Shown here: in pieces, positions 36,237 to 54,213 of the stretch
Position numbering within the stretch: the stretch's first letter is position 1
Layout of the letters: each line of letters begins with the position of its first letter
Assembly: GCA_036227345.1 (NCBI GenBank)
Contig: CP109468.1
Location: 5,828,001-5,892,000, forward strand
From: Streptomyces sp. NBC_01463
GTDB taxonomy: Bacteria; Actinomycetota; Actinomycetes; Streptomycetales; Streptomycetaceae
Length of the DNA: 64,000 nucleotides
Direction of reading: 5' to 3'
The notes under the pieces: generated by a model
The model's database searches: none
What the model was told of the DNA's origin: nothing
What the model saw: the letters and a program-made list of their open reading frames with translations, nothing else
Translations under genes and position numbers: made by a program

Positions 36237-37000
36237 TCGCCACCGCCCACACGTGCGGGCGCCGTGTCCGCTTCCAGCAGGGCCATGTGCTCGGCGACAC
36301 CCTGCGCGGTCGGCTCCCGCATCTCACCGGTGATGCGTCCGTCGACGAGGAAGACCACCCGGTCCGCGTACGAGGCGGCGACCGGGTCGTGCGTCACCAT
36401 GATCGTGGTCTGCCCCTGGTCGTCCACCAGGGACCGCAGCAGCTTCAGCACGGTCCGGCTGCTGCTGCTGTCCAGGGCACCGGTGGGCTCGTCGGCGAAC
36501 AGGACCGCGGGCGCCGTGATCAGCGCGCGGGCGATGGCCACCCGCTGCTGCTGGCCGCCGGACAGCTGCGAGGGCAGCCGCTTGGCGCGCTCGCCGAGTC
36601 CCACCTGGGCCAGGGCGGCCCGGACCTCCGCGGAATCGGGCCTGCGGCCCGCGAGCCGCAGGGGGAGCCCCACGTTCTGCTCGGCGCTCAGCGCGCCGAG
36701 CAGGTTGAACGCCTGGAAGATGAAACCGATCCGGTCCCTGCGCAGTTCGGTGAGGGCCTTCTCGCCGAGCGTTCCGAGATCGACGTCGTCGACGACCACC
36801 CGGCCCGAGTCGGGCCGGTCGAGTCCGGCCGCACACTGCAGCAGCGTGCTCTTGCCCGATCCGGACGGCCCCATGATCGCGGTGAGGGTGGTGCGTTCGA
36901 AGCCCACGGAGATCTCGTCGAGGGCACGCACCGCCGCGGAGGTGCCGGCCCCGTAGCACCTGCTGACCTGTTCGAGCCGGACCGCCTGAATGTCTGTCAT
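36233..37000 (-). CDS. ABC transporter ATP-binding protein (MacB/LolD-type)
   Basis: This is a 255-residue ATPase with Walker A GPSGSGKST near residue 44, Q-loop IFQAFNLL, signature LSGGQQQR near 143, Walker B VLFADEPTGALD near 164 and the H-loop VTHDP. The DEPTGALD and FQAFNLL motifs place it in the LolD/MacB/FtsE group that partners FtsX-like permeases. It forms a two-gene operon with the overlapping permease. A 34-codon ORF lies just upstream on the same strand. Confidence 0.93.
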   Translation of the reverse strand: MTDIQAVRLEQVSRCYGAGTSAAVRALDEISVGFERTTLTAIMGPSGSGKSTLLQCAAGLDRPDSGRVVVDDVDLGTLGEKALTELRRDRIGFIFQAFNLLGALSAEQNVGLPLRLAGRRPDSAEVRAALAQVGLGERAKRLPSQLSGGQQQRVAIARALITAPAVLFADEPTGALDSSSSRTVLKLLRSLVDDQGQTTIMVTHDPVAASYADRVVFLVDGRITGEMREPTAQGVAEHMALLEADTAPARVGGGE

Positions 37001-37175
37001 GCGTCAACGCCTTCAAGTGATGTCGTGCTGGTCCGATGAACTCGCCGTGCCCGTGGAGCCGGTTCAGTAGCCGCCCCATCGGTCCGGCAGATCCTGCCCG
37101 GCCGCTTCGGGGAACGGATCCAGCCGTCCCGGCGGGGTGTCCGGGGTGTCCGGGGAGTGCGGGGAGTCCTCGCTG

Positions 37176-37280
37176 TCATCCCCGAGGGGGCGCAGCTCGT
37201 CCGTTTGTGCCGGGCGGAGTGGCGGCCGTGTCGAGTGGCGTGTTCTTGACCGTGGTCGTGGGACGGAGCGGGCACTTCAT
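37176..37280 (-). CDS. Possible 34-residue peptide upstream of the ABC exporter
   Basis: This short frame starts with ATG at 37280 and has a very good ribosome site, AAGGGAG, six bases upstream. The predicted peptide starts MKCPLRPTTTV and is Thr/Pro/Ala-rich with one Cys. It is co-oriented with the ABC ATPase gene 175 bp downstream. It could be a leader or a small exported peptide, or chance in high-GC DNA. No family is recognised. Confidence 0.35.
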   Translation of the reverse strand: MKCPLRPTTTVKNTPLDTAATPPGTNGRAAPPRG

Positions 37281-37437
37281 CGAATCTCCCTTGAGGCGGT
37301 TGCCCGGGCAGCACCGCCAGATTCCCCCGCCCCTCTATGACGCCCCTACATCCGCGTGCCGGGGCCGGGCAGCGGCGCGGCCCGCCGCTTACGCGCTCGC
37401 TACACGCACCTCGCTACCGTGCTGTGACCTGCAAAAA

Positions 37438-37459
37438 AGGCCCTCCCGAAGGAGGGCCT
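37438..37459 (-). terminator. Original tRNA-Arg terminator, now left of attL
   Basis: AGGCCCTCC (37438-37446) and GGAGGGCCT (37451-37459) form a 9-bp stem with a CGAA loop. Six A residues lie at 37433-37438, giving a U-tract on the minus strand. It is a textbook rho-independent terminator beside the displaced tRNA 3' end, so it ended the tRNA-Arg transcript before insertion of the element. Confidence 0.8.
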
Positions 37460-37474
37460 GACGACGTACGGGCG

Positions 37475-37519
37475 GTGCGCCCCCGGCAGGACTCGAACCT
37501 GCGGCCAAGCGCTTAGAAG
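37475..37519 (-). repeat. attL core: displaced 3' part of tRNA-Arg
   Basis: These 45 bases are identical to 54138-54182. They contain the anticodon-side and 3' half of the tRNA gene up to the discriminator base. Similarity stops abruptly at 37520, where the 5' half of the tRNA is missing, so this is the copy created by site-specific integration. Confidence 0.92.
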
Positions 37520-37818
37520 AGAGTGTCTCTCTCACGCTGGTTCAGGGCCTTGACCTGCGAAGTAGCGGTGAGTCCCAGTCCGCCGATCCGCTTCATCCCC
37601 GTGTATTCACCGGAGGATGCGATTCCGCCCATCGCACCGCCTCGCCGACGGCGAGGCCACTGTCAGGCACCCCGACCGGGGTGCAGGGGGTAAAGGGCGG
37701 TGCACTCTGCAGATCCCACCGTCCCTGCTGCCTCCTTTAGGCCAAATGGGCGGTACGGAGGCCCTCGACGGGCGATGATGGTGCGGCTAGGCCATGAGCT
37801 ATCTCTACCTAAGAGCGG
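37520..37818. other. Non-coding left arm of the element
   Basis: No gene is seen. Two compact hairpins stand in a row: CCTCGCC/GGCGAGG (37640-37656) and GCACCCC/GGGGTGC (37667-37684). They may insulate the cargo genes from the flank or be part of the attP arm. Base composition drops toward the cargo gene. Confidence 0.5.
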
Positions 37819-39570
37819 ATGCCTGTGAGCAGAGTCTTTCTTCGCGGTTTTGGGCTTTCCAACTATCGAAGCTTCGGTCCCAATCCGCAGGTTGCCGGGC
37901 CATTTGGTGAGGTTAACCTTCTAGCCGGACAGAATAATGCTGGAAAATCCAATTTTCTGCGCGCAGTGGATAAGGTACTGAATACCTCGGGTGCCATCGG
38001 TTTTGGCGGCCTGGATGCTCCAGATAGTGCAACACGCGATGACGTTTTCACATACTCGACCCCAATTGACGTCACTTCGGAGGAGATACGTAAGGCCTTC
38101 CCTAATCTGCCAGAGCGAATCGACCAGTCGGCCGCTGGGATTTTCCTCATGCAGCTAATGCGGCATCCATCCTTGCACCCAAACGGGAGTAGCGACACTT
38201 GGTTTCGTTTCACTGCCGATCGGAACCTAGACAGCTCTCTTCTTGCGGAGATTGCTACCCCGGACAAATATAGTGCTTCGGTGCAGACGGCCATGGATCT
38301 CACTTCCAGCTATGTGCATGGAAACCCTGTCTCCTCAACCATAGAAAACGTACGAAAGCTGTTCATCACGCTTTTGTCTGAGCAGCAATCAGATCTTCCC
38401 TCGTGTGTCACGATCGAAGCGTTTAGAAGAATCACCCCGGACGACATTGCTGGAACGTACGACGGGGCCGGTCTGCTCGGGAGGTTGCAGCAGCTGCAGA
38501 ATCCTCCGGCGCCCTCTTACAAGGCCGATTCTGCCCGATTCCTGGCGATCAATGAATTCCTCAGGAGCATTCTGGGAGACTCCCAGGCCAGGCTCGAAGT
38601 TCCATACGGGGCTCAGACCGTCAACGTGCATCATGACGGGAAGGTGCTGCCACTTGAGCACCTGGGGACAGGAATTCATCAGGTGGTCATTCTGGCAGTC
38701 GCGGCAACGGTTCTAGAAGGCAAGGTTATTTGCATTGAAGAGCCTGAGGTGCACATGCACCCCGCCTATCAAAGGAAACTCATCAGGTACCTGTTCAGTG
38801 AGACCACAAATCAGTACTTGATCGCGACCCACTCGGCTCATCTATTGGACTACAAGCGTTCAACGATCGTTCACGTTACTCATGACGGCCAGAAAAGTAC
38901 GCTGGCGCCAGCGGCGACGCCAGCGGAGCTATCTGATGTCTGCGTGGACCTTGGCTACAGGCCATCCGATATCTTGCAGACCAATGCGATTATCTGGGTG
39001 GAAGGACCCTCTGATCGAATCTATTTGCAGCATTGGATCTCGCAAGTCGAGCCAGAACTTATCGAAGGCCTGCATTACTCGATCATGTTTTACGGGGGAA
39101 GGCTGCTGAATCACCTCACCGCAGAAGATCGTGAGGTTACAGATTTTATCGAGTTGCGTCGACTGAATCGCTATACATCAATCCTTATTGATAGTGACAA
39201 GACGTCATCGCGTGCCAGAATATCCGCCACGAAGAAGCGAGTGATTGATGAATTCGAAAAGGGAGTAACTACTGGGTGCGCCTGGGTAACGGAGGGGTAC
39301 ACGATCGAAAACTATGCGCCGCCTGGGATACTCGCGAATGCTGTGGCAGATACGCACCCTAGTGCTCCACCCGCGGTATGGAACGGCGAGCGCTGGTCGA
39401 ACCCGCTTCTTCTGCGTAAGCGATCCGGGGAGATCTTCCCTGTGGATAAAAATAAGATTGCTCGTTTCGTATGCCGCGAGTGGAAAGAGTTGCCTGATGC
39501 TAGGTCTCACCTATCGAAGCAGATTGCGAAACTAGTGGAATTTATTGAGGCCGCTAACCAGCACATGTAA
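37819..39570 (+). CDS. OLD-family ATPase with TOPRIM nuclease domain (candidate anti-phage protein)
   Basis: This is a 583-residue protein. The N-terminal ABC/SMC-like ATPase has FGLSNYRSFGP, Walker A AGQNNAGKSNF near residue 36, signature-like LGTGIHQVV near 284, Walker B VICIEEPEVHMHP near 303 and H-loop IATHSAHLL. The C-terminal TOPRIM part has the metal-site Glu in IIWVEGPSDR near 394 and the Asp pair in LIDSDKTSS near 457. This is the Old/Gabija-A-like architecture, used by many phage-defence nucleases. No UvrD-like GajB helicase follows, so it is not Gabija. Base composition is clearly lower in GC than the rest of the element. The ribosome site is weak; GTG at 37825 is an alternative start. 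Confidence 0.87.
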   Translation: MPVSRVFLRGFGLSNYRSFGPNPQVAGPFGEVNLLAGQNNAGKSNFLRAVDKVLNTSGAIGFGGLDAPDSATRDDVFTYSTPIDVTSEEIRKAFPNLPERIDQSAAGIFLMQLMRHPSLHPNGSSDTWFRFTADRNLDSSLLAEIATPDKYSASVQTAMDLTSSYVHGNPVSSTIENVRKLFITLLSEQQSDLPSCVTIEAFRRITPDDIAGTYDGAGLLGRLQQLQNPPAPSYKADSARFLAINEFLRSILGDSQARLEVPYGAQTVNVHHDGKVLPLEHLGTGIHQVVILAVAATVLEGKVICIEEPEVHMHPAYQRKLIRYLFSETTNQYLIATHSAHLLDYKRSTIVHVTHDGQKSTLAPAATPAELSDVCVDLGYRPSDILQTNAIIWVEGPSDRIYLQHWISQVEPELIEGLHYSIMFYGGRLLNHLTAEDREVTDFIELRRLNRYTSILIDSDKTSSRARISATKKRVIDEFEKGVTTGCAWVTEGYTIENYAPPGILANAVADTHPSAPPAVWNGERWSNPLLLRKRSGEIFPVDKNKIARFVCREWKELPDARSHLSKQIAKLVEFIEAANQHM

Positions 39571-39718
39571 TTCGGCCGACCGTCGAGTGCGGGACGACCC
39601 TTAGATGGCTTGTTATGTCAGCCACTTGCGCTCGAACTGACCGGGAGTTCGCCTTAGGGAGGTGAGGTGTGAGCGCAATTACCTCAGGCGGATAGGCGAT
39701 GAGACGGAGGGCAGCGAA

Positions 39719-40630
39719 ATGCAGGTTGAGGTGATTTCCGCACTAATTGGTGCAGCGGTGGCATTACCGGCTTCGGGGGTGGCGTACGCGGTGGGGCGTC
39801 ATCAAGCGGCAGCGACGATATCCGCCGCGCGCACACAGGCGGCAGCGGGGCAGAAGCAATGGCGCGATAATAATCGTCGTGCAGCTTGGCTCGCGTTCGT
39901 GCGCTCAGTCGACGAGGTGTCCGAGGCGGTGGACGGATTGGTCAATGGTAGGGAGCTTCGCGGCACTCCGATGGAGAATTTCGCAGCCGAGCTCAAGGAA
40001 AAGCTAGCAGATGTGGAATTTGAAGGCCCCGCAGAAATTTGGCGCATAGGGCAATGTCTGGTGAATGATCTGACTGAGAGGGCACTCCTTTCGGTGTTCA
40101 TAAGGCCATACGCCAATGCGCAGCATAGGTTTGACGGATTGCTAGCTGAGGCGCAACAGGGAATGATGATTTCCGTTCCGAGTGATGCGTCAAATCGATT
40201 CCGACGATTGATTAGGGCCGGGCACGCTCTGGAGGCCCTCTCGGGGGCGCGCAACACGGCTCCCTCGTTGCCACCGTCAGATAGTTTGATGGAAACGGCC
40301 ATGTTGATGATGTCCCCATTTATTCAAAGCGCCGGGAGGGAGGCCCGTGAGCCCTTGTCTCGTATTGCCCGGGGGGTCGTATCGCTTGTTCTAACTGCGA
40401 CCAGGGACACCCCTGTACCATTTTATGAAGCGCAACGAGTTCTTAGGGAATGTGATGAGTTCAGTGATGAGGAAATTGCTGCACTCCTTGTTGGTAATGC
40501 CTCGCGAATGATTCCTTCCTTTGAGGGGCTTCTGGGAAGGTCGCGTAATTCCTTCCGTGAGGCTCGACGGAAATTTATTCAGGAAACGGACAAGCATCTG
40601 GATGCGCGGTTGCCTGTGCGGCGGCAGTAG
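39719..40630 (+). CDS. Unknown membrane-anchored helical protein, partner of the OLD-like gene
   Basis: This 303-residue protein is not assigned to a family. An N-terminal hydrophobic helix (VISALIGAAVALPASGVAYAVG) is followed by a charged Ala/Arg-rich, probably coiled-coil stretch (ISAARTQAAAGQKQWRDNNRRAAWLAFVRSV), then a mostly helical domain. It shares the low GC content and direction of the OLD-like gene 148 bp upstream, suggesting co-acquisition. ATG at 39719 has GGAGG eight bases upstream; an earlier in-frame GTG at 39662 is less well placed. It contains at least one TTA codon (in VALPAS), so bldA may limit expression. Confidence 0.75.
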   Translation: MQVEVISALIGAAVALPASGVAYAVGRHQAAATISAARTQAAAGQKQWRDNNRRAAWLAFVRSVDEVSEAVDGLVNGRELRGTPMENFAAELKEKLADVEFEGPAEIWRIGQCLVNDLTERALLSVFIRPYANAQHRFDGLLAEAQQGMMISVPSDASNRFRRLIRAGHALEALSGARNTAPSLPPSDSLMETAMLMMSPFIQSAGREAREPLSRIARGVVSLVLTATRDTPVPFYEAQRVLRECDEFSDEEIAALLVGNASRMIPSFEGLLGRSRNSFREARRKFIQETDKHLDARLPVRRQ

Positions 40631-40964
40631 GGTTGCGGGGAGGTTCGCCGAACAGGCGCGTGAATTGGTCTTTACCCAGATTAATCGAAAGTGAATGAGA
40701 TGGTAGCTCCGCAGAGCATTGTCCTTCGGTCTCGTTCGGACTTTTAGCGGCGAGGGGTGCCGCGCTCTGCTTCGTGCTCAATATCAGGGATACCCGAGGG
40801 GGAGGGTGCCTACGCTGAAGTGGGCGGCTTGACGCGCGAGAGACCTTGGTGGTGACCGCGTGCTCGATGCCGACTCACCTAATCCCCCGGCTCGTTGGCC
40901 AGCTCCTGATCTCGCGCGGTGACGTGCGACCCTGACAGAACCGAAGTACGTGAAAGGAGGTGCC
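40631..40964. other. Non-coding gap before the regulatory block
   Basis: No gene is seen in 334 bp. GC content rises from left to right, marking the border between the cargo and the AICE backbone. TTGACG near 40829 is a possible -35 for the GntR gene, but no matching -10 is clear. The right end is a strong AAAGGAGG ribosome site. Confidence 0.45.
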
Positions 40965-41411
40965 GTGCCGGAAGTGAGTCCGCGCGGAACCTATCTGCTC
41001 ATCGCCGATGCGCTGCGGAAGGACATCGAGCACGGGCAACTCAAGGGCAGCGGCCTGCCGTCGGAGGCAGCTCTGATGAAGGCCCACGATGTCTCCCGCA
41101 ACACCATCCGCCGCGCGCTCAAGACGCTGGAGTCCGAGAGGCTGATCACGTCCGTGCCGGGGGCCGGCTGGCGCGTGTCCAGGGCCCCCATCCCGCCTCT
41201 TGTCGAGCGTTTGACCGCAGTCATCACGGAGGACTCGCTCGCAGTCGGCGACAGATACCCGTCAGAGGCGAACCTTTGCGAGCGCTTCGGGGTGTCGCGG
41301 ACTGCCGTGCGCCACGCTCTTGCACAGATGGGCGGAACCGGTCTGCTCGCCACTGTGCACGGCAAGGGGCGGACAGTGCGCGCCCTTCCGGCCACCCGAG
41401 AGGAGCCATAG
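40965..41411 (+). CDS. Tandem GntR-type winged-helix regulator (KorSA-like)
   Basis: This 148-residue protein is made of two GntR winged-helix units in a row: one from YLLIADALRKDIEHGQL through GAGWRV, the second from LVERLTAVITEDSLAVGDRYPSE through GKGRTV. Each has the LPSEAAL/YPSEANL and VSRNTIRRAL/VSRTAVRHAL signatures. There is no effector-binding domain. GntR-type regulators such as KorSA of pSAM2 repress AICE replication and transfer genes, and position suggests the same here. GTG at 40965 is chosen after AGGAGG; GTG at 40974 is possible. The HD gene starts three bases after its stop. Confidence 0.8.
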   Translation: MPEVSPRGTYLLIADALRKDIEHGQLKGSGLPSEAALMKAHDVSRNTIRRALKTLESERLITSVPGAGWRVSRAPIPPLVERLTAVITEDSLAVGDRYPSEANLCERFGVSRTAVRHALAQMGGTGLLATVHGKGRTVRALPATREEP

Positions 41412-41413
41412 CC

Positions 41414-41992
41414 TTGCCTTCCATGGGGCTTACTGAGTGGGCATACTCGCTCTCCGAATCAATGCTGGCCGAACCGCTGCCGCGTCGCTGGGCGCACTCC
41501 CTCGGGGTCGCCAAGCGGGCACGTTCCCTCAACCCGATCCTTGGTCGCGAAGCCGAGTTGCTGGAGGCCGCCGCCGTTCTGCACGATGTCGGTTACTCCC
41601 CGTCCATCGCCACCACCGGCTTCCACCCGCTCGACGGGGCCCGGTTCCTCCGAGACCAGGAGGGCGCCGACGAGCGGGTCGTCCGGCTCGTGGCGCATCA
41701 CTCCTGCGCGCTCCTGGAGGCCGAAGAACGGGGACTGCGGCATGAGCTGGAGACCGAGTTCGAGCTAGAGCAGCCTGAGCTGGTCGATGCACTCATCGTG
41801 TCGGACATGACCACTACCCCGGACGGCGGCCACACGACGCCGGCGGCCCGACTGGAAGAGATCGTGCAACGGTACGGGCCGGACACCATCGTTGGCCGCT
41901 TCATCCAGCGAGCGGCGCCGGAGATCCACGCAGCCACGGCACGGGTGGAGGGCCGGATGGCCCTTGTCCCGGCCGACACTCAGCCGATGTAG
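41414..41992 (+). CDS. HD-domain phosphohydrolase
   Basis: This is a 192-residue HD-superfamily protein with metal ligands in order: His in PRRWAHSLGVAKRA, the HD pair in AAVLHDVGYSPS, HH in RLVAHHSCAL, and a later Asp in ALIVSDMTT. Members hydrolyse nucleotides or cyclic nucleotides. A TTG start at 41414 is preferred because GAGGAG is eight bases upstream; ATG at 41423 would be too far. It is coupled to the GntR gene and its end overlaps the convergent Nudix gene by 13 bp. It may modulate a nucleotide signal during element control; the substrate is unknown. Confidence 0.82.
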   Translation: MPSMGLTEWAYSLSESMLAEPLPRRWAHSLGVAKRARSLNPILGREAELLEAAAVLHDVGYSPSIATTGFHPLDGARFLRDQEGADERVVRLVAHHSCALLEAEERGLRHELETEFELEQPELVDALIVSDMTTTPDGGHTTPAARLEEIVQRYGPDTIVGRFIQRAAPEIHAATARVEGRMALVPADTQPM

Positions 41993-42453
41993 GGCTCATT
42001 ACGTGACTCGTCCAGGGCGTGCTGGATTCGCAGGCGCATGGATGGGTGGATGTTGAGTTCAGCGAGGTCCGCCGGGTCCACCCAGCGGACCTCTTTGGAT
42101 TCACTGCTCGTGCGGAGGTCTCCGCCTACCGGGTGGGCCCGGAAGCAGATAGAGAACTGCTGCCGCACCTCGCCATCTGTGTACGCGAGCACGTGCTCCG
42201 GGTCGGTGTAGAGCCCGACAATGCCGTCTACCTCGACCTCGATTCCGGTCTCCTCGTTGACCTCGCGAACGGCCGTTTCAGCGATGCGCTCGCCGATGTC
42301 GTGGCCGCCCCCGGGCAATGCCCACAGATCGTTGTCGGTCTTGTGAATGACCAGGAGCCTGCCCGCGGCGTCGAGCACGGCGGCCGTGACTGAGGGCACC
42401 ACTGAGTTGGCCGCAGGGGCGTTGGGGTCACGGAAATAGTCGACTCGGCTCAT
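41980..42453 (-). CDS. Nudix hydrolase (possible Pif-like immunity factor)
   Basis: This 157-residue protein has a complete Nudix box, GGGHDIGERIAETAVREVNEETG, matching Gx5Ex7REUxEExGU, near residues 47-69. Family members cleave nucleoside diphosphate-linked compounds. In pSAM2 the Nudix-motif protein Pif confers conjugal immunity against redundant transfer. A Nudix gene beside the regulators of this AICE may do likewise, but this is inference. Its ATG overlaps the stop of the XRE-type gene as ATGA, so the two form an operon. Confidence 0.85.
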   Translation of the reverse strand: MSRVDYFRDPNAPAANSVVPSVTAAVLDAAGRLLVIHKTDNDLWALPGGGHDIGERIAETAVREVNEETGIEVEVDGIVGLYTDPEHVLAYTDGEVRQQFSICFRAHPVGGDLRTSSESKEVRWVDPADLAELNIHPSMRLRIQHALDESRNEPYIG

Positions 42454-43220
42454 GTGTCTGGAGCTCCTAGGTCAGTGGGCGAGGAGATGGGCCGCGCAGT
42501 CTCCCAGACCCGTTCAACGCTTTCGGCGTACGAGTCGAACAGCTCACCCCCGGGGACGCGTTGGATGTGCAACACCGGCGCCATGTACGCGCCTACGCCG
42601 TACAGGTGGCCGTTGGCGAGCATCTCGTCATCGGCTCGGTAGATCGAGTTGTAGAGCGTGGTGGAGTGGAGTCGGAACTCCACCCCTGGGAGCTGGAACA
42701 GTGAGGCGTAGTTGACCAGCGCGTTGCGAATCTTGCTGCCCATCGCGCCCCCGATTCCCTCGTCCTCGCCGCGCACAGCGACGGCCGCGGACTCGGGGTC
42801 CCCGAGCATGAATCGGATGCGGGCGCCGGTCGCCGACTTTTCCTTGACGATCTGGTGGAATGCCGCGTCCTCGGTGAGCCAGAAGCCCGAGTAGACGAGT
42901 AAGTCAAAGTGTCGTGAGGCTCGGGCGTAGAGCTGCGACCACAGGCGGTTCGGTACCACGGAACGGTGGGGGTAGAGCTTGATCAGCTCAGCATTCCCAG
43001 CCTCTGTTACCTGCGCTGATGTGCGCTCGTCCGGCCAGAGGTAGGACATCTCGCACCGCAGTAGCGAGGCTGCCGCGTACTTGAAGCGGTGGTACGGCTG
43101 CCGTTTCGGCTCATTGACCCAGCGTTCGACCGTCTTGGCCGACACGCCTAGCTGTTCTGCGACTTGATCGAGCGATAAGCCGCTCTTGGTGATCGCGCCG
43201 CGCAGCCGCTCATTCGCCAT
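42450..43220 (-). CDS. XRE-type HTH regulator with PLD-like C-terminal domain
   Basis: This is a 256-residue protein. Residues 1-60 are a helix-turn-helix (ERLRGAITKSGLSLDQVAEQLGVSAKTVERWVNEPKRQP). The larger C-terminal domain (FDLLVYSGFWLTEDAAFHQIVKEK, ARIRFMLGDPES, HLYGVGAYMAPVLHIQRV) resembles the phospholipase-D-like fold seen in the DUF5919 group, with no full HKD motif visible, so likely a sensing domain. ATG at 43220 with GGGAGAG upstream is chosen; the frame extends further but runs through repeated operator-like DNA. It is the first gene of the XRE-Nudix operon. Confidence 0.8.
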   Translation of the reverse strand: MANERLRGAITKSGLSLDQVAEQLGVSAKTVERWVNEPKRQPYHRFKYAAASLLRCEMSYLWPDERTSAQVTEAGNAELIKLYPHRSVVPNRLWSQLYARASRHFDLLVYSGFWLTEDAAFHQIVKEKSATGARIRFMLGDPESAAVAVRGEDEGIGGAMGSKIRNALVNYASLFQLPGVEFRLHSTTLYNSIYRADDEMLANGHLYGVGAYMAPVLHIQRVPGGELFDSYAESVERVWETARPISSPTDLGAPDT

Positions 43221-43884: not shown

Positions 43885-44148
43885 ATGAAGACCATCGTTG
43901 CACTTCAGGCCACTGTTACGGCCGCCTCGCTCGACTTCGAGCCGTCGGCCGCCGAGCTGGACGCGATCGAGCTGGAGATGCCGCTCATCCGGGCGGAAGT
44001 CGAGTTGCTGGACGCGCAGATCATGACCATTGACCGGCCGGCGAACGAGCTGGACATGCGGCGGGTCCGGAGGGCGGGCCGCAAGGTGCTGGCCGCCCGC
44101 CGTGCGCTGGCGAACGCCGCGTCGCAGGTTCCGGGGGTGGGGGCATGA
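43885..44148 (+). CDS. DUF6284-family small protein, first gene of transfer operon
   Basis: This is an 87-residue acidic-to-basic helical protein: MKTIVALQATVTAASLDFEPSAAELDAIELEMPLIRAEVELLDAQI, then MRRVRRAGRKVLAARRAL. This pattern recurs at the start of AICE and plasmid transfer operons and is catalogued as DUF6284. Function is unknown; the heptad-like Leu spacing suggests a coiled coil. TAGGAG lies upstream. Its stop overlaps the next ATG (ATGA). Confidence 0.75.
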   Translation: MKTIVALQATVTAASLDFEPSAAELDAIELEMPLIRAEVELLDAQIMTIDRPANELDMRRVRRAGRKVLAARRALANAASQVPGVGA

Positions 44149-44597
44149 GCACCCTCACTCCTCACCAGGCTCTCATCGCCGCGCACGCCGAGGTGAAAGC
44201 CGAGATCGCGCGGACCGACACCAAGACGGGTCTGCTGCTGGCGTTCGTCGGCGCGCTTCTGGCCGGTGCCTGGACCGTCGCCAAGGACGCGCCGCTGAAC
44301 CTGCCCGCCTACGTGGCCGGGGGGATCGGGATGGGGCTGCTGGTCGCGGCGGCCGGTCTGCTGCTGCGGTCGGTCCGCCCGAACCTTGGCGGCCGGCACG
44401 GCTTCCCGTTGTGGGCCACGCTCACCGCGGAGCAGATCCCCGCCACTCTGTCCGGGAACCTCAGCGCGGACATCGCTGGCCTGTCCCGGCTGGCCGTCAC
44501 CAAGTTCACCGGCCTGCGCCGCGCAGTCGATCTGACCTGCGCGGGCGGTGCCCTGCTCGTCCTCGCCGCTCTGATCACCCTCGGGGGTGCGGCATGA
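44145..44597 (+). CDS. Pycsar-effector-like two-helix membrane protein
   Basis: This is a 150-residue protein. A soluble N-terminal helix containing EIARTDTKTGLLLAFVGALLAG runs into the first membrane helix. A second helix (YVAGGIGMGLLVAAAGLLLRSV) and a final hydrophobic segment (CAGGALLVLAALITLGG) follow. The ADTK-type helix leading into paired TM segments is the pattern of the PycTM effector family from Pycsar anti-phage systems. No nucleotide cyclase lies beside it, so here it may be a transfer or spread protein that shares the fold. It is coupled on both sides by ATGA overlaps. Confidence 0.7.
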   Translation: MSTLTPHQALIAAHAEVKAEIARTDTKTGLLLAFVGALLAGAWTVAKDAPLNLPAYVAGGIGMGLLVAAAGLLLRSVRPNLGGRHGFPLWATLTAEQIPATLSGNLSADIAGLSRLAVTKFTGLRRAVDLTCAGGALLVLAALITLGGAA

Positions 44598-46416: not shown

Positions 46417-46544
46417 CCGTCCCTCCTGAACACCCGAAGGCCGTGGGCGGCCCACAGGGCGCCTGAACCCCCTTCCGGGTGGGTCGAGACCCCCCGGGCC
46501 GTGTGCGGCCGCCACAACCCCCGTAGCGACGCAGGGTGACCGGA

Positions 46545-46603
46545 GTTTCCGGATTCGCGCGCGCACGCGTAGGGACCCCCTGGGAAACCAGGAAACCGGA
46601 AAC
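46545..46603. repeat. Cluster of GGAAAC repeats upstream of traB
   Basis: GGAAAC occurs three times in tandem at 46583-46588, 46591-46596 and 46598-46603, at 7-8 bp spacing, and its complement GTTTCC lies at 46545-46550. Short direct repeats of this size near a TraB gene recall TraB recognition (clt) repeats. It could equally be an operator. Confidence 0.4.
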
Positions 46604-46632
46604 ACGCTCACTCCGCGTACACGCACACCCGC

Positions 46633-46664
46633 GTGAGGGCGGGCCGTGCAGGGCCCGCCCTCAC
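46633..46664 (+). terminator. Hairpin just upstream of traB
   Basis: GTGAGGGCGGGCC (46633-46645) pairs perfectly with GGCCCGCCCTCAC (46652-46664), a 13-bp stem with a 6-nt loop, 28 bp before the TraB start codon. It may terminate the small-gene transcript or attenuate traB. Confidence 0.65.
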
Positions 46665-46691
46665 CGACTCAGAACCCTTGGAGAAGATCCC

Positions 46692-48485
46692 GTGAGTCAG
46701 TCTCAAGTCTGGCGTACGCACCGCCAGTACGCCGCCACCGCCGCCCGCTGGAGCGCGGACCGGTGGCGCAAGGAAGCAGACCGCCGCCACGCTCTGCGCG
46801 CCCAGCGCAAGCCGCTCGTGGCCGACGCCCGCGCCGCACTCGCACGCGCGCAGGCCGTCGACCCCGAGGGAGTCACCTCCCTGCGCCACCGCGCGGAGCG
46901 GGAGTTGCGCACGGCCAAGCGTCGGGTGCCGGACCCGATGTGGCTGTTCGCCTCCAAGACGGCCGCCGCTCTCGGGGTCGCCGGGTACGTGTGGCTGCCG
47001 CAGGTGTCCGTCCGTGCGTGGGTGTGGTCCGCGATCGCCGTGGTCGCCGCCGTCACCGCGCTGACGGTCTGGACCGCCGTGCGTGGGCGTGACACCACCG
47101 GTCTCGCACCCACGGCCGAAGAGGCCGCGCTGCTGAAACGCCTCCAGCCTCAGTACTGGAAGGAGCACGCCGAACAGCGCGGCCTCGCCGGAACGCTCAC
47201 CGGCCGGCCGAAGCTGACCGACGCCGGAATCGTGTGCGCGGTCCGCCTCGACGGGACCTGGACCGCGACCAAGCTCCGCGGCGCTGAGGACCACATCCGT
47301 GCCCTGCTCGGAGCGCGCACCAGCCTGCGCATCCAGACCAAGGCGGGCAAGCAGGGCGGGTGGGCCGAACTCGTCCTGCGCACCCGCAGCGCCGCCGACG
47401 GCGACGACCTGACGTGGACTCCCGAGCGCCGCTCCCTCGGCATCGACACCGTGACCGGCGAGCAGGTGACCGTGCCCCTCGGGGAACGGCTGCTGATCGC
47501 CGGTCGCTCGGGCGCCGGAAAGTCCGTCGCCTCCCGCCCGCTCCTGTACGACGCATCCGAGGGCCCGGCCAACGCGCTGGTCATCATCGATCTCAAGCGC
47601 GTAGAAGGCCGCCTGTGGGACCACCGGGCACGCGTCGCTTCCACCCCGCACGAGGTCATCGACGTCACCGACGAACTGGAGACCGAGATGCTGGATCGGC
47701 TCTCCGTCCTGCCCAAGGGACAGGACACCTGGACCCCCACCCCGGACCGGCCCCGGATCACGGTCGTCGTCGACGAGGGCGCCGAAGTCATGACCGCCGC
47801 CGACAAGGTCCCGTACGAAACCGAGACCGCCGACGGCAAGACCCGCACTGCCAACCGGTCCGCGCTGCCCGCCCTGGAGTCCATCGCCCGCATGGGCCGC
47901 GCGGCGTGCATCGACCTGTGGTGGATGACCCAGAAGCCCACCATCGGCGACGGCATCCCCAAGCAGATCGCGCCACAGATCGGCGTCTCCATCTGCCTCG
48001 CCGTCCGCACGCCGGCCGAAGCCCGCGTCGTCCTCGGAGAGGACGCGCAGGCCAAGGGATGGACCGCCGACGAACTCCCCGTCCCCGGGGTGGCCTTGAT
48101 CCGTGACGGGAAGCGCAAGCCCGACCCGGTCAAGGTCCGCTACATGGACAAGGCCGTCGTTATCGCCCTGCCCGACCGCACCCCCTGGTCACGTTCGGGG
48201 GCGGCGACTTCGGAAGCCGCGGGCACCCCGACGCTCACCCTCGTGAAGAACACCGCACCCGAACCCGCACCCGCCGAGGACAGCGCGACCGCCCGCGTAC
48301 TCAAGGCCATCGAGACCACCGATCAGCCGGTCCGACAGAAGGACCTGGTGTCGCTCACCGGCTTGTCCAAGGGTGCCGTGTCCAAGAGCGTCAAGCGCCT
48401 CACCGAGACCGGCCGGCTCCTCCGCCAGACCGACGGCACCCTCACCCACCCTGGCACTGAGACCGGTACAGCGGTGGCGTCATGA
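46692..48485 (+). CDS. traB: TraB/FtsK-SpoIIIE-type DNA translocase
   Basis: This 597-residue protein moves double-stranded DNA between mycelia. Basic N-terminal ~110 residues precede two membrane helices (TAAALGVAGYVWLPQVSV; VWSAIAVVAAVTALTVWTAV). A FtsK motor follows, with Walker A GRSGAGKSVA near residue 271 and Walker B ITVVVDEGAE near 356, plus the arginine/sensor stretch SIARMGRAACIDLWWMTQKP. The C-terminus is a winged helix (PVRQKDLVSLTGLSKGAVSKSVKRLTETG) that would read recognition repeats on the element. GTG at 46692 has GGAGAAG upstream. It ends overlapping a 49-codon ORF. Confidence 0.9.
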   Translation: MSQSQVWRTHRQYAATAARWSADRWRKEADRRHALRAQRKPLVADARAALARAQAVDPEGVTSLRHRAERELRTAKRRVPDPMWLFASKTAAALGVAGYVWLPQVSVRAWVWSAIAVVAAVTALTVWTAVRGRDTTGLAPTAEEAALLKRLQPQYWKEHAEQRGLAGTLTGRPKLTDAGIVCAVRLDGTWTATKLRGAEDHIRALLGARTSLRIQTKAGKQGGWAELVLRTRSAADGDDLTWTPERRSLGIDTVTGEQVTVPLGERLLIAGRSGAGKSVASRPLLYDASEGPANALVIIDLKRVEGRLWDHRARVASTPHEVIDVTDELETEMLDRLSVLPKGQDTWTPTPDRPRITVVVDEGAEVMTAADKVPYETETADGKTRTANRSALPALESIARMGRAACIDLWWMTQKPTIGDGIPKQIAPQIGVSICLAVRTPAEARVVLGEDAQAKGWTADELPVPGVALIRDGKRKPDPVKVRYMDKAVVIALPDRTPWSRSGAATSEAAGTPTLTLVKNTAPEPAPAEDSATARVLKAIETTDQPVRQKDLVSLTGLSKGAVSKSVKRLTETGRLLRQTDGTLTHPGTETGTAVAS

Positions 48486-49581: not shown

Positions 49582-50414
49582 ACACCCTGCTGCACACCGC
49601 CCTGACACTGAGCGCCCGCAGCGTCCCCGTGCTGCCGCTGCGGGCGGGGAAAGTCCCGTTCGGAAACTGCCCGGCCTGCCGGGACAACGCGTGTGGCGGC
49701 CGGCCGAACATGAAGACCCCTGGTGCCTGCCAGTGCCCCCGCGTCTGCCATGGATGGGCCGCTGCCGCGACCGATCCCGCTGTTCTCACCGGACACCCGT
49801 GGGCGTCCGTGTGGGAGCAGGCCCAAGCCGTCGCCTACCACCCCGGCGGCGCTGGACTCACTGTCGTCGACCTGGACGATCCCCAGGCCGTCGCCTGGGC
49901 TCATCAGACGCTGCCCGCGACCAGGACCGTCCCCACCACTCGTGGTGAGCACTGGGTCTACCTGGGTTCGATCCGGTCCGCGAACTCAGTGCGGCCGGGC
50001 GTGGACATCAAGTCGCTGATGTCCTACGCCCGGTGGCTCGGCCCTGGCACCGGCACCATGACCGAGCTTCCGGACACCGTGCGCGCGCTGGCCGTCAAGG
50101 AACCCTCCACGGCCCGGCCCGCGCCGCACATCGCCGTGCCCGCGTCGGCCGGTGGCGGGGAGTGTCCTCACCGCATGCCCGCCTACCTGGACCGTGGCAT
50201 CGCCATGGCCGAGCAGCGCATCACCGAGGCCACGTGCGCGGTGCACGCCACCGTGTACCGCACGTTCCTCGCGGTGCTGTCCGCTCACGGCCGGTGCGGC
50301 TGCCTCACGGACACCCACATCACGCGGCTGTTCGCCGCCGCCCAGACCAAGGGCGAGAGCCCCCGGCATTGCACCGACGCGTGGACCAACGCCCTGACCC
50401 GGTTGGGACTGTGA
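49578..50414 (+). CDS. Bifunctional DNA primase/polymerase (prim-pol)
   Basis: This 278-residue protein has an N-terminal archaeo-eukaryotic primase-polymerase fold: ALTLSARSVPVLPLRAGKVPFGNCPACRDNACGG, a zinc cluster of about six cysteines and a histidine (PNMKTPGACQCPRVCHGW), the metal motif LTVVDLDDPQA near residue 96, and the GEHWVYLG strand. Prim-pol proteins prime and start replication in one of the known AICE replication types. It is coupled to the TGT-like gene before it and the helicase after it. Confidence 0.85.
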   Translation: MNTLLHTALTLSARSVPVLPLRAGKVPFGNCPACRDNACGGRPNMKTPGACQCPRVCHGWAAAATDPAVLTGHPWASVWEQAQAVAYHPGGAGLTVVDLDDPQAVAWAHQTLPATRTVPTTRGEHWVYLGSIRSANSVRPGVDIKSLMSYARWLGPGTGTMTELPDTVRALAVKEPSTARPAPHIAVPASAGGGECPHRMPAYLDRGIAMAEQRITEATCAVHATVYRTFLAVLSAHGRCGCLTDTHITRLFAAAQTKGESPRHCTDAWTNALTRLGL

Positions 50415-51901
50415 CCATGGCTGACGACGAGAAGAACCCCGCCCGCGAGATCATCACCGACTACGCACAGCAGCATTTCAGGTACTTCCGCACCGCCGAC
50501 GGCACCGTCTACGCGCAGAAGAACGGCCACCCCGTCGCCCGCCCGATCCGCTCCCAGGGCACCACCGGCAGCCACCGCCAGGAACTCATGGTCGGCATGT
50601 TCAAGGACGGAGTCGGCGTGTTCAACGGCACCGCCCTCAAAGAGGCCCTGGACCTGATCGAAGCCCTGGCGCTGACCGAGGACACCCAGGCCGTACAGAT
50701 CCGCGTCGCCCCCGGGTTCGACGGGGCGACGTGGCTGGACCTGGGACGCAACGACGGACAGTCCGTCCGCATCCACCCCACCGGGTGGGACATCGCCGTG
50801 CCTGACCCGCGTGAGGTGTGCTGGCGGCGCACCCAGCTCACCGGGGAACTTCCGCTGCCGGCCAAGGACACTGACGGCAAAGGCATCGACCGCCTGTTCC
50901 GGTTGACGAACTTCACCAACGCCGACTCCGAGTGCCTGGCCATGGCATGGCTGATCGGCTGCCTCGGCCCCTCCGTCCCCGTCCCTGCACCGTTCCTCAC
51001 CGGCCCGCAGGGCGCGGGCAAGTCCACCACGGGCCGGATGTTCGTGCGGATCATCGAGGGCATGAGCGGCGACCTGCGCCGGGCCCCGAAGGATGAGGAG
51101 AACCTGATCGCGGCCGTCGCGGCGGGATGGGTCACCGCGCTGGACAACCTGTCCCACATGACGCCTGACCTCTCCGACGCGATGTGCTGCATCGTCACCG
51201 GGGCCGAGAGCGTCAAGCGGGCCCTGTTCACCGACGGGGACGTGCACCGCTCCCGCTACCGCCGGCCTCTCCTGCTGACGGGCATCGACGTGGGCGTCAT
51301 CCGTCCCGACCTTGCCGAACGCCTCCTGCCTCTGCGGCTGGAACGGCCCACCGTCCGGCGCACCGAGGCCGAACTGTGGCGCGAGTTCGAGGAAGCCCTG
51401 CCCGTCATCCTCGGCTCGCTCCTGGACCTCACGGTCAAGGTCCGTGGCGCCGAAGCGGAGACACCCACGGATCTACGCATGGCCGACTTCGCCCACCTGT
51501 GCGCCCAGGTCGACGCGGCAAACAGCCTCGGAGCACTCAACGCCTACCGCGTCAGCCTGGACGACCTCAACGACGACGTGATCGAGGGTGACCTGCTCGC
51601 GCAGACCGTCCTCGCGCACGCCGACACCATGGCCCCGGGCGACGGGCAGCGCATGACGTCCACGCAGTGGCTGCACTGCCTCAGCACCGTCTACAGCGGC
51701 GAGGAACTGCGCCCCCTGCCCAAGGGTTGGCCGACCACCGGCAAAGTCCTCTCCGACCGGCTCAAGCGCCTACAGCCCACCCTGGCCGCACGCGGTGTCC
51801 TCATCGACAGCGGACGGACCCGCGAGGGCCGCTACCTCGAAATGGTCCGCCGCCCCGCCCCGGAACCCGACCAGCAGCAGGAGCAGCAGGCAGCGTTCTG
51901 A
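50411..51901 (+). CDS. Replication helicase/ATPase partner of prim-pol
   Basis: This 496-residue protein has Walker A LTGPQGAGKSTTGRMFVRI near residue 197, Walker B-like GWVTALDNLSHMTP near 243, and arginine-finger candidates in RYRRPLLLTGIDVGV and DLAERLLPLRLERP. The pattern suits a D5/SF3-like AAA+ replicative helicase. It would unwind the origin for the upstream primase. The GTG at 50411 overlaps the prim-pol stop (GTGA) and gives start VTMADDEK; ATG at 50417 is the alternative. It is followed by a strong terminator. Confidence 0.82.
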   Translation: MTMADDEKNPAREIITDYAQQHFRYFRTADGTVYAQKNGHPVARPIRSQGTTGSHRQELMVGMFKDGVGVFNGTALKEALDLIEALALTEDTQAVQIRVAPGFDGATWLDLGRNDGQSVRIHPTGWDIAVPDPREVCWRRTQLTGELPLPAKDTDGKGIDRLFRLTNFTNADSECLAMAWLIGCLGPSVPVPAPFLTGPQGAGKSTTGRMFVRIIEGMSGDLRRAPKDEENLIAAVAAGWVTALDNLSHMTPDLSDAMCCIVTGAESVKRALFTDGDVHRSRYRRPLLLTGIDVGVIRPDLAERLLPLRLERPTVRRTEAELWREFEEALPVILGSLLDLTVKVRGAEAETPTDLRMADFAHLCAQVDAANSLGALNAYRVSLDDLNDDVIEGDLLAQTVLAHADTMAPGDGQRMTSTQWLHCLSTVYSGEELRPLPKGWPTTGKVLSDRLKRLQPTLAARGVLIDSGRTREGRYLEMVRRPAPEPDQQQEQQAAF

Positions 51902-52366: not shown

Positions 52367-52552
52367 GTGGCACGCCCCAGGATGCTCACCCTTCCCGAAG
52401 TCTGCGAAGAACTGCACGTCTCGCGATCGACCTTCTACGACTGGCGCCAGAAGGGCCGCGCCCCCCGCTGCATCAAGCTCCCGAACGGCGATCTGCGCGT
52501 ACGGCGGAGCGACTTGGACAACTGGCTCGACGACCACGAGGACGCCGCTTGA
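52367..52552 (+). CDS. xis: Excisionase (AlpA/MerR-like HTH)
   Basis: This is a 61-residue protein with the HTH_17 pattern LTLPEVCEELHVSRSTFYDWRQKGRAPRCIKLPNGDLRVRRSDLDNWL. In AICEs this small gene directly before int encodes the directionality factor for excision. GTG at 52367 with GAGGAG seven bases upstream is chosen; the longer frame runs into the GTGACGC array. Its stop overlaps the int ATG as TGATG. Confidence 0.88.
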   Translation: MARPRMLTLPEVCEELHVSRSTFYDWRQKGRAPRCIKLPNGDLRVRRSDLDNWLDDHEDAA

Positions 52553-53940
52553 TGGAAACGACCTACAACGTCAAGGTCTGGAAGATCTCGACGTACAAGG
52601 GAGCACGAGGCACCACGTACACCGTGCGATGGACCTTGGACGGCAACGAGCAGCGGGCTCCGTTCGCGACACGAGCACTCGCGGACGCCTTCCGCTCCGA
52701 GCTGGTCAGCGCGACCAGGCGCGGTGAGGCATTCAGCTTCAGCACGGGGCGGCCCGTCTCCCATCAGACGGGCGCCACTGCCGTGAACTGGTACGACTTC
52801 GCTGTCCAGTTCGCCGACCTCCAATGGGATCGGACGGCCGGCAACAGCCGGAAGAACACATCCAAGGCGCTCACGGCCACCACGGTTGCTCTGCTGCGGA
52901 CGCCACCGACAGGCTTCCGGCCCGTCGACGTGCGCACAGCGCTGCGTGAGTTCGCCTTCAACACCAAGCGGCGCGAGGAGGCCCCGCCGGAGGTGTTGGC
53001 CATCCTCCGGTGGGTGGAACGGAACACGCTGTCCATGTCGGCCTGGGAGGACCCAGCGAAGGTGGACGGAGTTTTGCGGGCGTTCGACGTCCGGCTGGAC
53101 GGCACGCGAGCCGCTGCCAGCTCCGTAAAGCGAAATCGGCGTGTCCTCAACGTCGCCATGGAGCACGCCGTGAAGCGCAAGGTTCTGCGGACGAATCCCC
53201 TGCCGAAGGGCAGGGGAACCGCGCCGAAGACGTCGTCGGCGGTGGACAAGCGGGCAATCCTGAATACGGGCCAGGCGGCCCGACTGCTGGGCTGGGTGCG
53301 CAGCCGTTCCCGCGGTGGCCCCCGGCTGCACGCATTCTTCGCGCTGCTCTATTACGCAGGCCCGCGCCCCGAGGAGGCAGTGGCGATGCGGGTGCGGGAC
53401 ATCCGGCTGCCCGCCCCGGACGTTGCGGACCAGTGGTGCGAGCTGTTGTTCCACACGGCTCAGCCGGAGGTCGGCAAGAACTGGACCGACAGCGGAGCCA
53501 TCCACGAGGAGCGCGGATTGAAGGGGCGAGCCGCGGACGATACCCGCGTCGTCCCAGGACATCCGTCCCTCACAAGGATCCTGCGCGAGCACATCAAGGC
53601 TGAGGAACTGAAGTCGAGCGACCTGCTGTTCCAGGGGGAGAGGGGCGAGTTGCTTGCCGGGTCCGTCATTCGCCGCGCCTGGCGATCCGCGCGTGTGAAG
53701 GTCCTCACCCCTGATGAGTTCGCCTCACCTTTGGGCAAGCGGGTTTACGACCTGCGGCACACGAGGTTGACCAAGTGGCTCAACGACGGCATTCCGCCGG
53801 CACAGGTCGCGGAGTGGGCAGGGAACAGCGTGCCGATCCTGCTGGCCATCTACGCCCGCTGTGTGGCCGGTCAGCTCTCCGAGCTGAAGAAGCGGATGGA
53901 GGCGGGGGAGGACCTCCCCGAGCTGCCTGACGCGGGCTGA
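52552..53940 (+). CDS. int: Tyrosine recombinase integrase
   Basis: This 462-residue phage-type integrase has an N-terminal arm- and core-binding region, then a catalytic domain with the first Arg in LLYYAGPRPEEAVAMR near residue 273, the RHTR box in YDLRHTRLTKWLN near 402, the Trp/His position in EWAGNSVP, and the nucleophilic Tyr in AIYARC near 433. It catalyses attP x attB recombination at tRNA-Arg. The 198-bp gap to attR is typical for an int-proximal attachment site. Confidence 0.93.
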   Translation: METTYNVKVWKISTYKGARGTTYTVRWTLDGNEQRAPFATRALADAFRSELVSATRRGEAFSFSTGRPVSHQTGATAVNWYDFAVQFADLQWDRTAGNSRKNTSKALTATTVALLRTPPTGFRPVDVRTALREFAFNTKRREEAPPEVLAILRWVERNTLSMSAWEDPAKVDGVLRAFDVRLDGTRAAASSVKRNRRVLNVAMEHAVKRKVLRTNPLPKGRGTAPKTSSAVDKRAILNTGQAARLLGWVRSRSRGGPRLHAFFALLYYAGPRPEEAVAMRVRDIRLPAPDVADQWCELLFHTAQPEVGKNWTDSGAIHEERGLKGRAADDTRVVPGHPSLTRILREHIKAEELKSSDLLFQGERGELLAGSVIRRAWRSARVKVLTPDEFASPLGKRVYDLRHTRLTKWLNDGIPPAQVAEWAGNSVPILLAIYARCVAGQLSELKKRMEAGEDLPELPDAG

Positions 53941-54137: not shown

Positions 54138-54182
54138 GTGCGCCCCCGGCAGGACTCGAACCTGCGGCCAAGCGCTTAGAAG
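54138..54182 (-). repeat. attR core: 3' part of the intact tRNA-Arg
   Basis: These 45 bases are identical to attL (37475-37519). The left boundary differs immediately outside (T versus G) and the right boundary after 54182 (G versus A). Here the core joins the tRNA 5' half, so the tRNA stays functional. Confidence 0.92.
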
Positions 54183-54213
54183 GCGCCTGCTCTATCCACT
54201 GAGCTACGGGGGC
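54141..54213 (-). tRNA. tRNA-Arg (anticodon UCU)
   Basis: This is a 73-nt tRNA on the minus strand. The acceptor stem is GCCCCCG/CGGGGGC with discriminator G. The D-arm is GCTC/GAGC, the anticodon stem GGCGC/GCGCT with loop CTTCTAA (anticodon TCT), and the T-arm GCAGG/CCTGC with TTCGAGT. CCA is not encoded. It reads AGA codons. Its 3' portion forms attR of the integrated element. Confidence 0.95.

What the first reader, a model, noticed from the sequence alone, without database searches (positions are those of the whole stretch)
37819..40630. Candidate defence cargo: OLD-type ATPase/TOPRIM protein with an unknown membrane-anchored partner
The pair sits at the left end of the AICE, has clearly lower GC than both the element backbone and the chromosome, and is not part of the transfer or replication machinery. 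The first protein combines an OLD-type ATPase with TOPRIM metal residues (VEGPSDR, LIDSDK), an architecture used in phage defence. The usual partners (GajB helicase, retron RT) are absent. Instead a 303-residue one-helix protein of no known family follows in the same direction. A membrane-linked partner would be an unusual OLD arrangement.
Basis: partly seen in the sequence, partly recalled or inferred. Interest (0 to 1): 0.72.

Follow-up and report, generated by a model that had tools for sequence, protein, structure and literature searches.

The report
Lone OLD nuclease, not a pair
A mobile DNA element, probably in a Streptomyces chromosome, carries a single-gene OLD-family nuclease that may be defence cargo, and the small membrane protein beside it looks like an unrelated neighbour because it did not turn up next to any other such gene examined.

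Summary
The first (37819/37825-39570) encodes a full-length OLD-type ATPase/TOPRIM protein. The second (39719-40630) encodes a 303-aa protein with one hydrophobic N-terminal stretch. Both are low in GC and lie just inside the left attachment repeat of a 16.7-kb AICE in a tRNA-Arg gene.

The pairing does not hold. Of 114 loci with OLD relatives (80 genome, 34 viral; some near-duplicates, 10 viral ones partial or distant), 0 carry a relative of the second gene, not even the AICE of a 75%-identical OLD. Conversely, 0 of 18 fetched loci of the second gene's wider family carry the OLD gene. A profile of that family, unnamed in four libraries, hits 78 of 150 same-genus genomes, often over its N-terminal half only; one member sits beside GntR in a related AICE without OLD.

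The OLD protein belongs to a large pan-bacterial group with no conserved near neighbour and a nearly invariant active site; the 3 Streptomyces-titled relatives among the 80 genome loci all lie in AICEs of this backbone. By context it is Class 1-like; its TxE and distant-Lys spacing looks more Class 2-like (inference).

Best reading: two independent cargo genes, the OLD one probably a stand-alone anti-phage or anti-element nuclease. Low-to-moderate interest.

The parts
37475..37519 (.). left attachment repeat (45-bp exact copy of 54138-54182)
37825..39570 (+). OLD-family ATPase/TOPRIM protein, 581 aa from the GTG at 37825 (583 aa from the ATG at 37819). Residues numbered from the ATG: Walker A 37-44, Walker B around 303-308, H-loop H338, TOPRIM E395/D399, DxD D458/D460, TxE T495/E497, K544 (motif names by recall, positions from alignments)
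39719..40630 (+). 303-aa protein, one predicted N-terminal hydrophobic helix (residues about 3-26) then an all-helical domain; independent cargo, not an OLD partner
40950..41411 (+). GntR-family regulator of the AICE
41423..41992 (+). HD-domain hydrolase (AICE HD/Nudix module)
   Evidence: scanned as the longer frame 40919-41992; module described in PMC3218068 (passages)
41980..42453 (-). Nudix-hydrolase-like ORF (name by recall; 65% identical to an ORF in L139; not scanned in Pfam)
46536..48485 (+). FtsK/TraB-like DNA translocase
   Evidence: FtsK_SpoIIIE 25.0 bits, cut-off 24
50033..51901 (+). replication-type AICE protein, called Rep here by recall; 78% and 76% identical over 386 and 624 residues in L005 and L006; 0 Pfam families
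52549..53940 (+). tyrosine-integrase-like protein (Phage_integrase 25.6 bits, just below the 27.1 cut-off)
54138..54182 (.). right attachment repeat, overlapping the 3' part of tRNA-Arg(TCT) 54140-54213

Best explanation
The two genes are independent cargo in a variable slot between the left attachment site and the GntR/HD/Nudix module of one AICE backbone. The first encodes a stand-alone OLD-family nuclease of a large unnamed group: an ABC-type ATPase (dimeric, by analogy with TsOLD) that gates a two-metal TOPRIM DNA nuclease acting on foreign or abnormal DNA, such as replicating phage or competing-element DNA and free DNA ends, much as phage P2 Old interferes with lambda. It needs no dedicated partner gene. 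The second encodes a small membrane-anchored, cytosolic all-helical protein of a common family of the genus with its own, unknown job. Shown: gene content, AICE, domain and active-site residues, absence of pairing in the loci examined, recurrence in AICEs. Inferred: nuclease activity, defence role, membrane topology.
For: 0 of 114 OLD loci carry a relative of the second gene, with the narrow and the broad profile (the window's own copy scores 448 and 310 bits as positive control); 0 of 18 fetched loci of the second gene's wider family carry OLD. Among the six nearest called ORFs no neighbour family recurs in more than 5 of 114 loci (that one integrase-like by recall), and 38 of 114 loci have a same-strand ORF within 250 nt downstream. 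The 3 Streptomyces-titled loci among the 80 genome loci (L005-L007) lie in AICEs with this backbone. A relative of the second gene sits beside GntR in a related AICE without OLD in the fetched 13.5 kb (L139). Active site near-invariant in 102 sequences. OLD genes have lower GC than their locus in 78 of 80, and more than 10 points lower in 41 of 80, against 2 of 91 near and 1 of 90 far control ORFs, as expected of mobile genes.
Against: No functional data. Defence genes are not clearly enriched next to the OLD genes: 114 PADLOC models were hit among 138 near neighbours against 46 among 126 far ones at E<=1e-20, but models are redundant and each of the 25 shown hits 1 or 2 proteins. Archaeal Cran1 shows that an OLD protein can have a non-defence role (PMC12796447). 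Both genes share low GC3 (0.577 and 0.566) and orientation, so joint acquisition and co-transcription here are possible. The tree position among known OLD classes was not determined.
Confidence: 0.7

Rival explanations
1. A genuine two-gene defence system restricted to this element: the membrane-anchored protein senses or localises and the OLD protein cuts DNA.
For: Same strand, 148 nt apart, similar low GC3 (0.577 and 0.566), no intrinsic terminator between them in the simple scan. Precedent: archaeal Cran1 OLD in a conserved operon with a membrane protein (PMC12796447, passages).
Against: 0 of 114 OLD loci have it, including the 75% relative BV286; 0 of 18 fetched loci of its wider family have OLD; its wider family is common in the genus (78 of 150) where the OLD gene is rare (1 of 392 at E<=1e-40).
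Confidence: 0.06
2. The OLD protein serves the element or host in DNA metabolism (repair, replication or copy control) rather than in immunity, as Cran1 serves the cell cycle.
For: Cran1 is an OLD protein with an essential non-defence role (PMC12796447, abstract and passages); the neighbours show no clear defence-island signal.
Against: Patchy distribution over many phyla, on AICEs, plasmids and viral contigs, and much lower GC than the surroundings, unlike vertically inherited Cran1.
Confidence: 0.18
3. The OLD gene is dead or unexpressed cargo in a decaying AICE.
For: Pseudogenisation of AICE cargo is reported as common (PMC9513070, passages).
Against: Full length, uninterrupted, all catalytic residues kept.
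Confidence: 0.06

Closest known systems
Class 1 OLD nucleases (P2 Old, Thermus scotoductus OLD)
   Same: single gene with no conserved partner; ATPase plus TOPRIM; metal A/B residues correspond by order and spacing (E395, D399, D458, D460, E497)
   Different: only partial sequence match (6p74: profile positions 261-360; PADLOC Old best stretch 301-357). The Lys lies 47 residues after the last Glu, against 7 in P2 Old (E543 to K550), closer to Class 2 BpOLD (E508 to K562, 54); residue numbers from PMC7049728 and PMC6755086 (passages)
Class 2 OLD / GajA of Gabija
   Same: best PADLOC and PDB profile matches; TxE and distant Lys resemble BpOLD T506-x-E508 and K562
   Different: no GajB-type helicase among the element ORFs scanned, none found by blastp in 114 relatives' loci (moderate sensitivity); best match limited to residues about 302-412
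Cran1 / class 5 OLD of Sulfolobales
   Same: OLD gene beside a gene for a predicted membrane protein
   Different: there the pair is reported as conserved and vertically inherited; here the neighbour is not conserved and the gene is mobile cargo
AICE cargo (pSAM2-type elements)
   Same: cargo slot beside a GntR/HD/Nudix/HTH module, tRNA attachment site
   Different: OLD cargo is not named in the AICE passages seen (PMC3218068, PMC9513070; their supplements were not seen)

Membership tests
OLD family | N-terminal ABC-type ATPase with Walker A, Walker B, H-loop | tested here: met
   (K43, E307, E308, H338 in 102 of 102)
OLD family | C-terminal TOPRIM with Glu and DxD | tested here: met
   E395, D460 in 102 of 102 and D458 in 101 of 102; but PF20469 is below cut-off for the window protein; 25 of the 27 members of A2 match it at E<=0.1, best 0.0012
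OLD family | metal-dependent nuclease activity | not testable with these tools
   bench assay needed
Class 1 OLD (single gene) | no conserved neighbouring gene | tested here: met
   largest neighbour cluster 5 of 114 loci among the six nearest called ORFs; no Pfam family in more than 2 of 138 sampled near neighbours
[quoted passage not shown]
Class 2 OLD / Gabija | tandem UvrD/PcrA/Rep-like helicase | tested here: not met
   window: no helicase family hit by the 10 element ORFs scanned. Relatives: 0 of 114 loci by blastp at E<=1e-8 with the longest frames of four UvrD loci of the own genome; no positive control was run, L161's frame length agrees with the tool's UvrD frame and L160's does not; the motif regex was uninformative
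Class 3 OLD (retron) | adjacent reverse transcriptase and ncRNA | tested here: not met
   no RT family hit by the 10 element ORFs scanned, no Rfam match in 37000-42500; relatives not tested with a valid control
Class 4 OLD (PARIS) | ATPase and TOPRIM in separate genes | tested here: not met
   one ORF holds both; the review notes that AriAB is sometimes fused (PMC10568477)
Class 5 OLD (Cran1) | conserved operon with a membrane protein | tested here: not met
   the window's neighbour recurs in 0 of 114; 5 of the 38 loci with a close same-strand downstream ORF have some N-terminal hydrophobic stretch there, in unrelated-looking proteins
AICE | tRNA attachment repeats, integrase, FtsK/TraB translocase, replication gene | tested here: met
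   integrase just below its Pfam cut-off, Rep called by recall

The most novel reading that the evidence does not exclude
The OLD protein represents an uncharacterised, pan-bacterial OLD class: single-gene like Class 1 but with a Class 2-like active site and C-terminal region, sufficient alone for broad exclusion of phages and rival elements, and spread as cargo of AICEs, plasmids and prophages.
Probability: 0.22. Interest if true: 0.6.

Novelty: new member of a known kind. Interest (0 to 1): 0.3.

Why it matters
A 2023 review states that there is no known example of a bacterial or archaeal Class 1 (single-gene) OLD protein sufficient for broad-spectrum anti-phage defence (PMC10568477, passages). 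A large single-gene OLD group that recurs as Streptomyces AICE cargo gives a tractable way to test that. The negative result also argues against naming these two genes as a two-gene system.

Tried and rejected
Rejected: OLD plus membrane partner as a system (0 of 114; 0 of 18). Rejected: Gabija (no helicase found) and retron (no RT, no ncRNA match in the window).

Led nowhere: (a) genome contigs and viral-contig scans with the second protein's alignment found no relative (the patterns were narrow, so this is weak evidence of absence); (b) tblastn of it on plasmids and phages gave nothing at E<=1e-5; (c) regex tests for UvrD and RT near OLD hit nothing anywhere in the loci, although PADLOC finds RT-type proteins in the far set, so that control failed and is not used; (d) near and far neighbour scans: no clear defence enrichment; (e) contexts of 3 of the 8 plasmid records: no membrane protein annotated next to the OLD gene, neighbours mostly hypothetical proteins, transposases, another AAA ATPase and an HNH endonuclease gene; (f) a literature search for OLD family, integrative and conjugative element, Streptomyces and endonuclease together: 0 papers; further listings added nothing that is used beyond the papers cited.

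The GC control used the near or far ORFs of 400-800 aa (91 and 90). One search used 102 of 104 OLD frames from L005-L108. Genes in loci were called as longest non-overlapping ORFs. The 114 loci include near-identical duplicates (e.g. L090/L091, L097/L098, L101-L103, L105/L106, L060/L107, seen), and the last 10 viral ones (L109-L118) are partial or distant matches. The 18 loci include duplicates too (L141/L155, L151/L152) and range from 7.1 to 16.5 kb. One search kept the best 80 of 152 confirmed relatives. In some searches only 5 and 3 candidates per genome were scored.

Full report
WHAT IS THERE. ORF 37819-39570 (+) encodes 583 aa (581 aa from the GTG at 37825, where relatives start). It matches AAA_15 and AAA_21 above cut-off and OLD-like_TOPRIM below it; the best PADLOC match is a GajA model whose best stretch is residues 303-412, and no NCBIfam cut-off is reached. 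ORF 39719-40630 (+) encodes 303 aa with no match in Pfam, PADLOC, NCBIfam or PHROGs. It has one hydrophobic stretch at residues 3-21 (mean Kyte-Doolittle 1.84), and its predicted structure is all-helical (mean pLDDT 81.9, pTM 0.67, 12-sequence alignment), with the first 20 residues near pLDDT 50 and residues 11-17 below 50. That the helix spans the membrane and the rest is cytosolic is inference. The genes are 148 nt apart; no intrinsic terminator was found between them.

ELEMENT. A 45-bp exact repeat at 37475-37519 and 54138-54182, the second overlapping tRNA-Arg(TCT) 54140-54213, bounds a 16.7-kb element with GntR, HD, FtsK/TraB-like, DpdA-like and integrase-like genes. The AICE literature describes the same kind of HD (mdp), Nudix and XRE gene cluster and GntR regulators (PMC3218068, passages). 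The OLD start lies about 300 bp inside the left repeat. GC: OLD 52.7%, second gene 56.5%, eight other element genes 64-72%, one chromosomal gene 74%.

IS IT A PAIR? I collected 80 genome loci (best 80 of 152 confirmed relatives) and 34 viral-contig loci encoding OLD relatives, 27-75% identical in the best segment; 10 of the viral ones (L109-L118) are partial or distant. A profile of the second protein's family (12 rows, alignment A1) searched against all ORFs of 50 aa or more found only the window's own copies (448 bits); everything else was at E>=0.07. A broader profile (22 rows, alignment A4) gave the same result: 310 bits for the window, next best E 0.34, while it recovers all 18 loci. So 0 of 114 OLD loci carry it; the 114 include some near-duplicates. 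Conversely, the OLD protein has no blastp match (E<=1e-4) in those 18 fetched loci of the second protein's wider family. The second protein's close family is tiny: 13 distinct proteins over two searches (12 listed in each) including the window's own, those with a named host all from Streptomyces. Of the named hosts none coincides with a named host of an OLD protein of 60% identity or more; S. scabiei is named once in each list (second-gene fragment P0011 and OLD P0053, 51%), but their longest contigs differ in length, 90 and 197 kb. Its wider family is common: 78 of 150 same-genus genomes at E<=1e-6, many matches covering only about the first half of the profile, including a second copy in this genome. 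One relative (L139, 310 aa, opposite strand) lies beside GntR/HD/Nudix genes of a related AICE (43-65% identity), without OLD in the 13.5 kb fetched.

WHAT THE OLD GENE DOES ELSEWHERE. Near neighbours were not conserved: among the six nearest called ORFs the largest cluster spans 5 of 114 loci (integrase-like by recall), no Pfam family occurs in more than 2 of 138 sampled near neighbours, and 38 of 114 loci have a same-strand downstream ORF within 250 nt, 5 of them with an N-terminal hydrophobic stretch. The three Streptomyces-titled loci among the 80 (L005 BV286 75%, L006 S. yangpuensis 51%, L007 S. humidus 52%) lie in AICEs with this backbone: the Rep-type ORF is 78% and 76% identical in L005 and L006, and ORF 44030-45454 is 86% and 75% identical in L005 and L007. 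GntR genes in L005 and L006 and an FtsK_SpoIIIE match in L007 agree. Next to OLD, L005 has an HTH protein and L006 has DUF218 and GntR genes instead of the 303-aa gene. No other locus of L005-L118 matched these AICE proteins at E<=1e-6. Plasmids of Rhodococcus, Burkholderia, Vibrio, Ruegeria and Arthrobacter also carry relatives (8 records at E<=1e-30); no record in the phage collection did at E<=1e-20. Among 392 same-genus genomes only the own genome had it at E<=1e-40, with 3 candidates scored per listed genome.

LOW GC IS A FAMILY TRAIT. The OLD gene is lower in GC than the rest of its locus in 78 of 80 loci (mean -10 points) and more than 10 points lower in 41 of 80. For ORFs of 400-800 aa in the same loci the figures are 23 of 91 and 2 of 91 (near) and 19 of 90 and 1 of 90 (far). 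The gene's low GC is thus not specific to this element.

HOW IT PROBABLY WORKS. In 102 aligned relatives E395, D399, D460, E497 and K544 are invariant and D458 is kept in 101; T495 is T in 17 and E in 85. By order and spacing they correspond to TsOLD E377, D381, D431, D433, S478, E480 and BpOLD E400, E404, D455, D457, T506, E508, K562, which mutation shows to support two-metal DNA cleavage (PMC7049728, PMC6755086; passages). This mapping is by motif and not by a structure. The Lys lies 47 residues beyond the TxE Glu, against 54 in BpOLD (Class 2) and 7 in P2 Old (Class 1), suggesting a Class 2-like C-terminal domain in a single-gene OLD. I therefore expect an ATPase-gated two-metal nuclease acting on foreign or abnormal DNA without a partner. 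Mutating the ATPase or TOPRIM residues of P2 Old abolishes its killing of recBC cells, and in the 2023 review P2 Old is the only Class 1 protein established to block a phage (PMC7049728, PMC10568477; passages). Defence is thus plausible, not shown. Against it: no clear defence-gene enrichment next to the family and the non-defence role of archaeal Cran1 (PMC12796447, passages).

NOVELTY. OLD proteins, single-gene OLDs and defence cargo on AICEs are all known kinds; PMC9513070 (passages) reports restriction-modification and abortive-infection cargo. An OLD gene beside a membrane-protein gene is also reported (Cran1). What may be new is the unnamed, widespread single-gene group: 4792 proteins at E<=1e-5 among the 7999 candidates scored, a set that may include other OLD groups. 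Its place among clades U1-U11 of PMC12796447 was not tested. A search for OLD family with AICE-type terms returned 0 papers.

Noticed in passing
window 48736-49581 (+), inside the AICE: DpdA-like protein (Pfam PF23859, 5.4e-68; PHROG 'queuine tRNA-ribosyltransferase', 3e-69) between the FtsK/TraB-like and replication-type genes. tblastn finds relatives in 47 plasmid records, 27 of them Streptomyces; in two of the ten listed records a 'VUT family protein' (queuosine-precursor transporter by recall) also lies under the match. The element may modify its own DNA with 7-deazaguanine.
   Followed up: partly
L145, L147, L151, L152 (G158, G066, G179): Near-identical 307-aa members of the second gene's wider family about 7 kb from an end of contigs C1 and C2 of G179 and 16 kb from a contig end of G158: possibly a subtelomeric or linear-plasmid gene.
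   Followed up: no
G000:C1:8218141-8218320 (L002), outside the window: A second, distant match to the OLD TOPRIM region (31% over 60 residues, 666-aa open frame) in the same genome.
   Followed up: no
L005-L084 (genome loci): OLD genes of this group are markedly lower in GC than their surroundings across phyla (78 of 80), unlike size-matched neighbours.
   Followed up: partly
L139 3753-5074: Two further ORFs without a Pfam match (289 and 154 aa) beside the second gene's relative in the related AICE.
   Followed up: no
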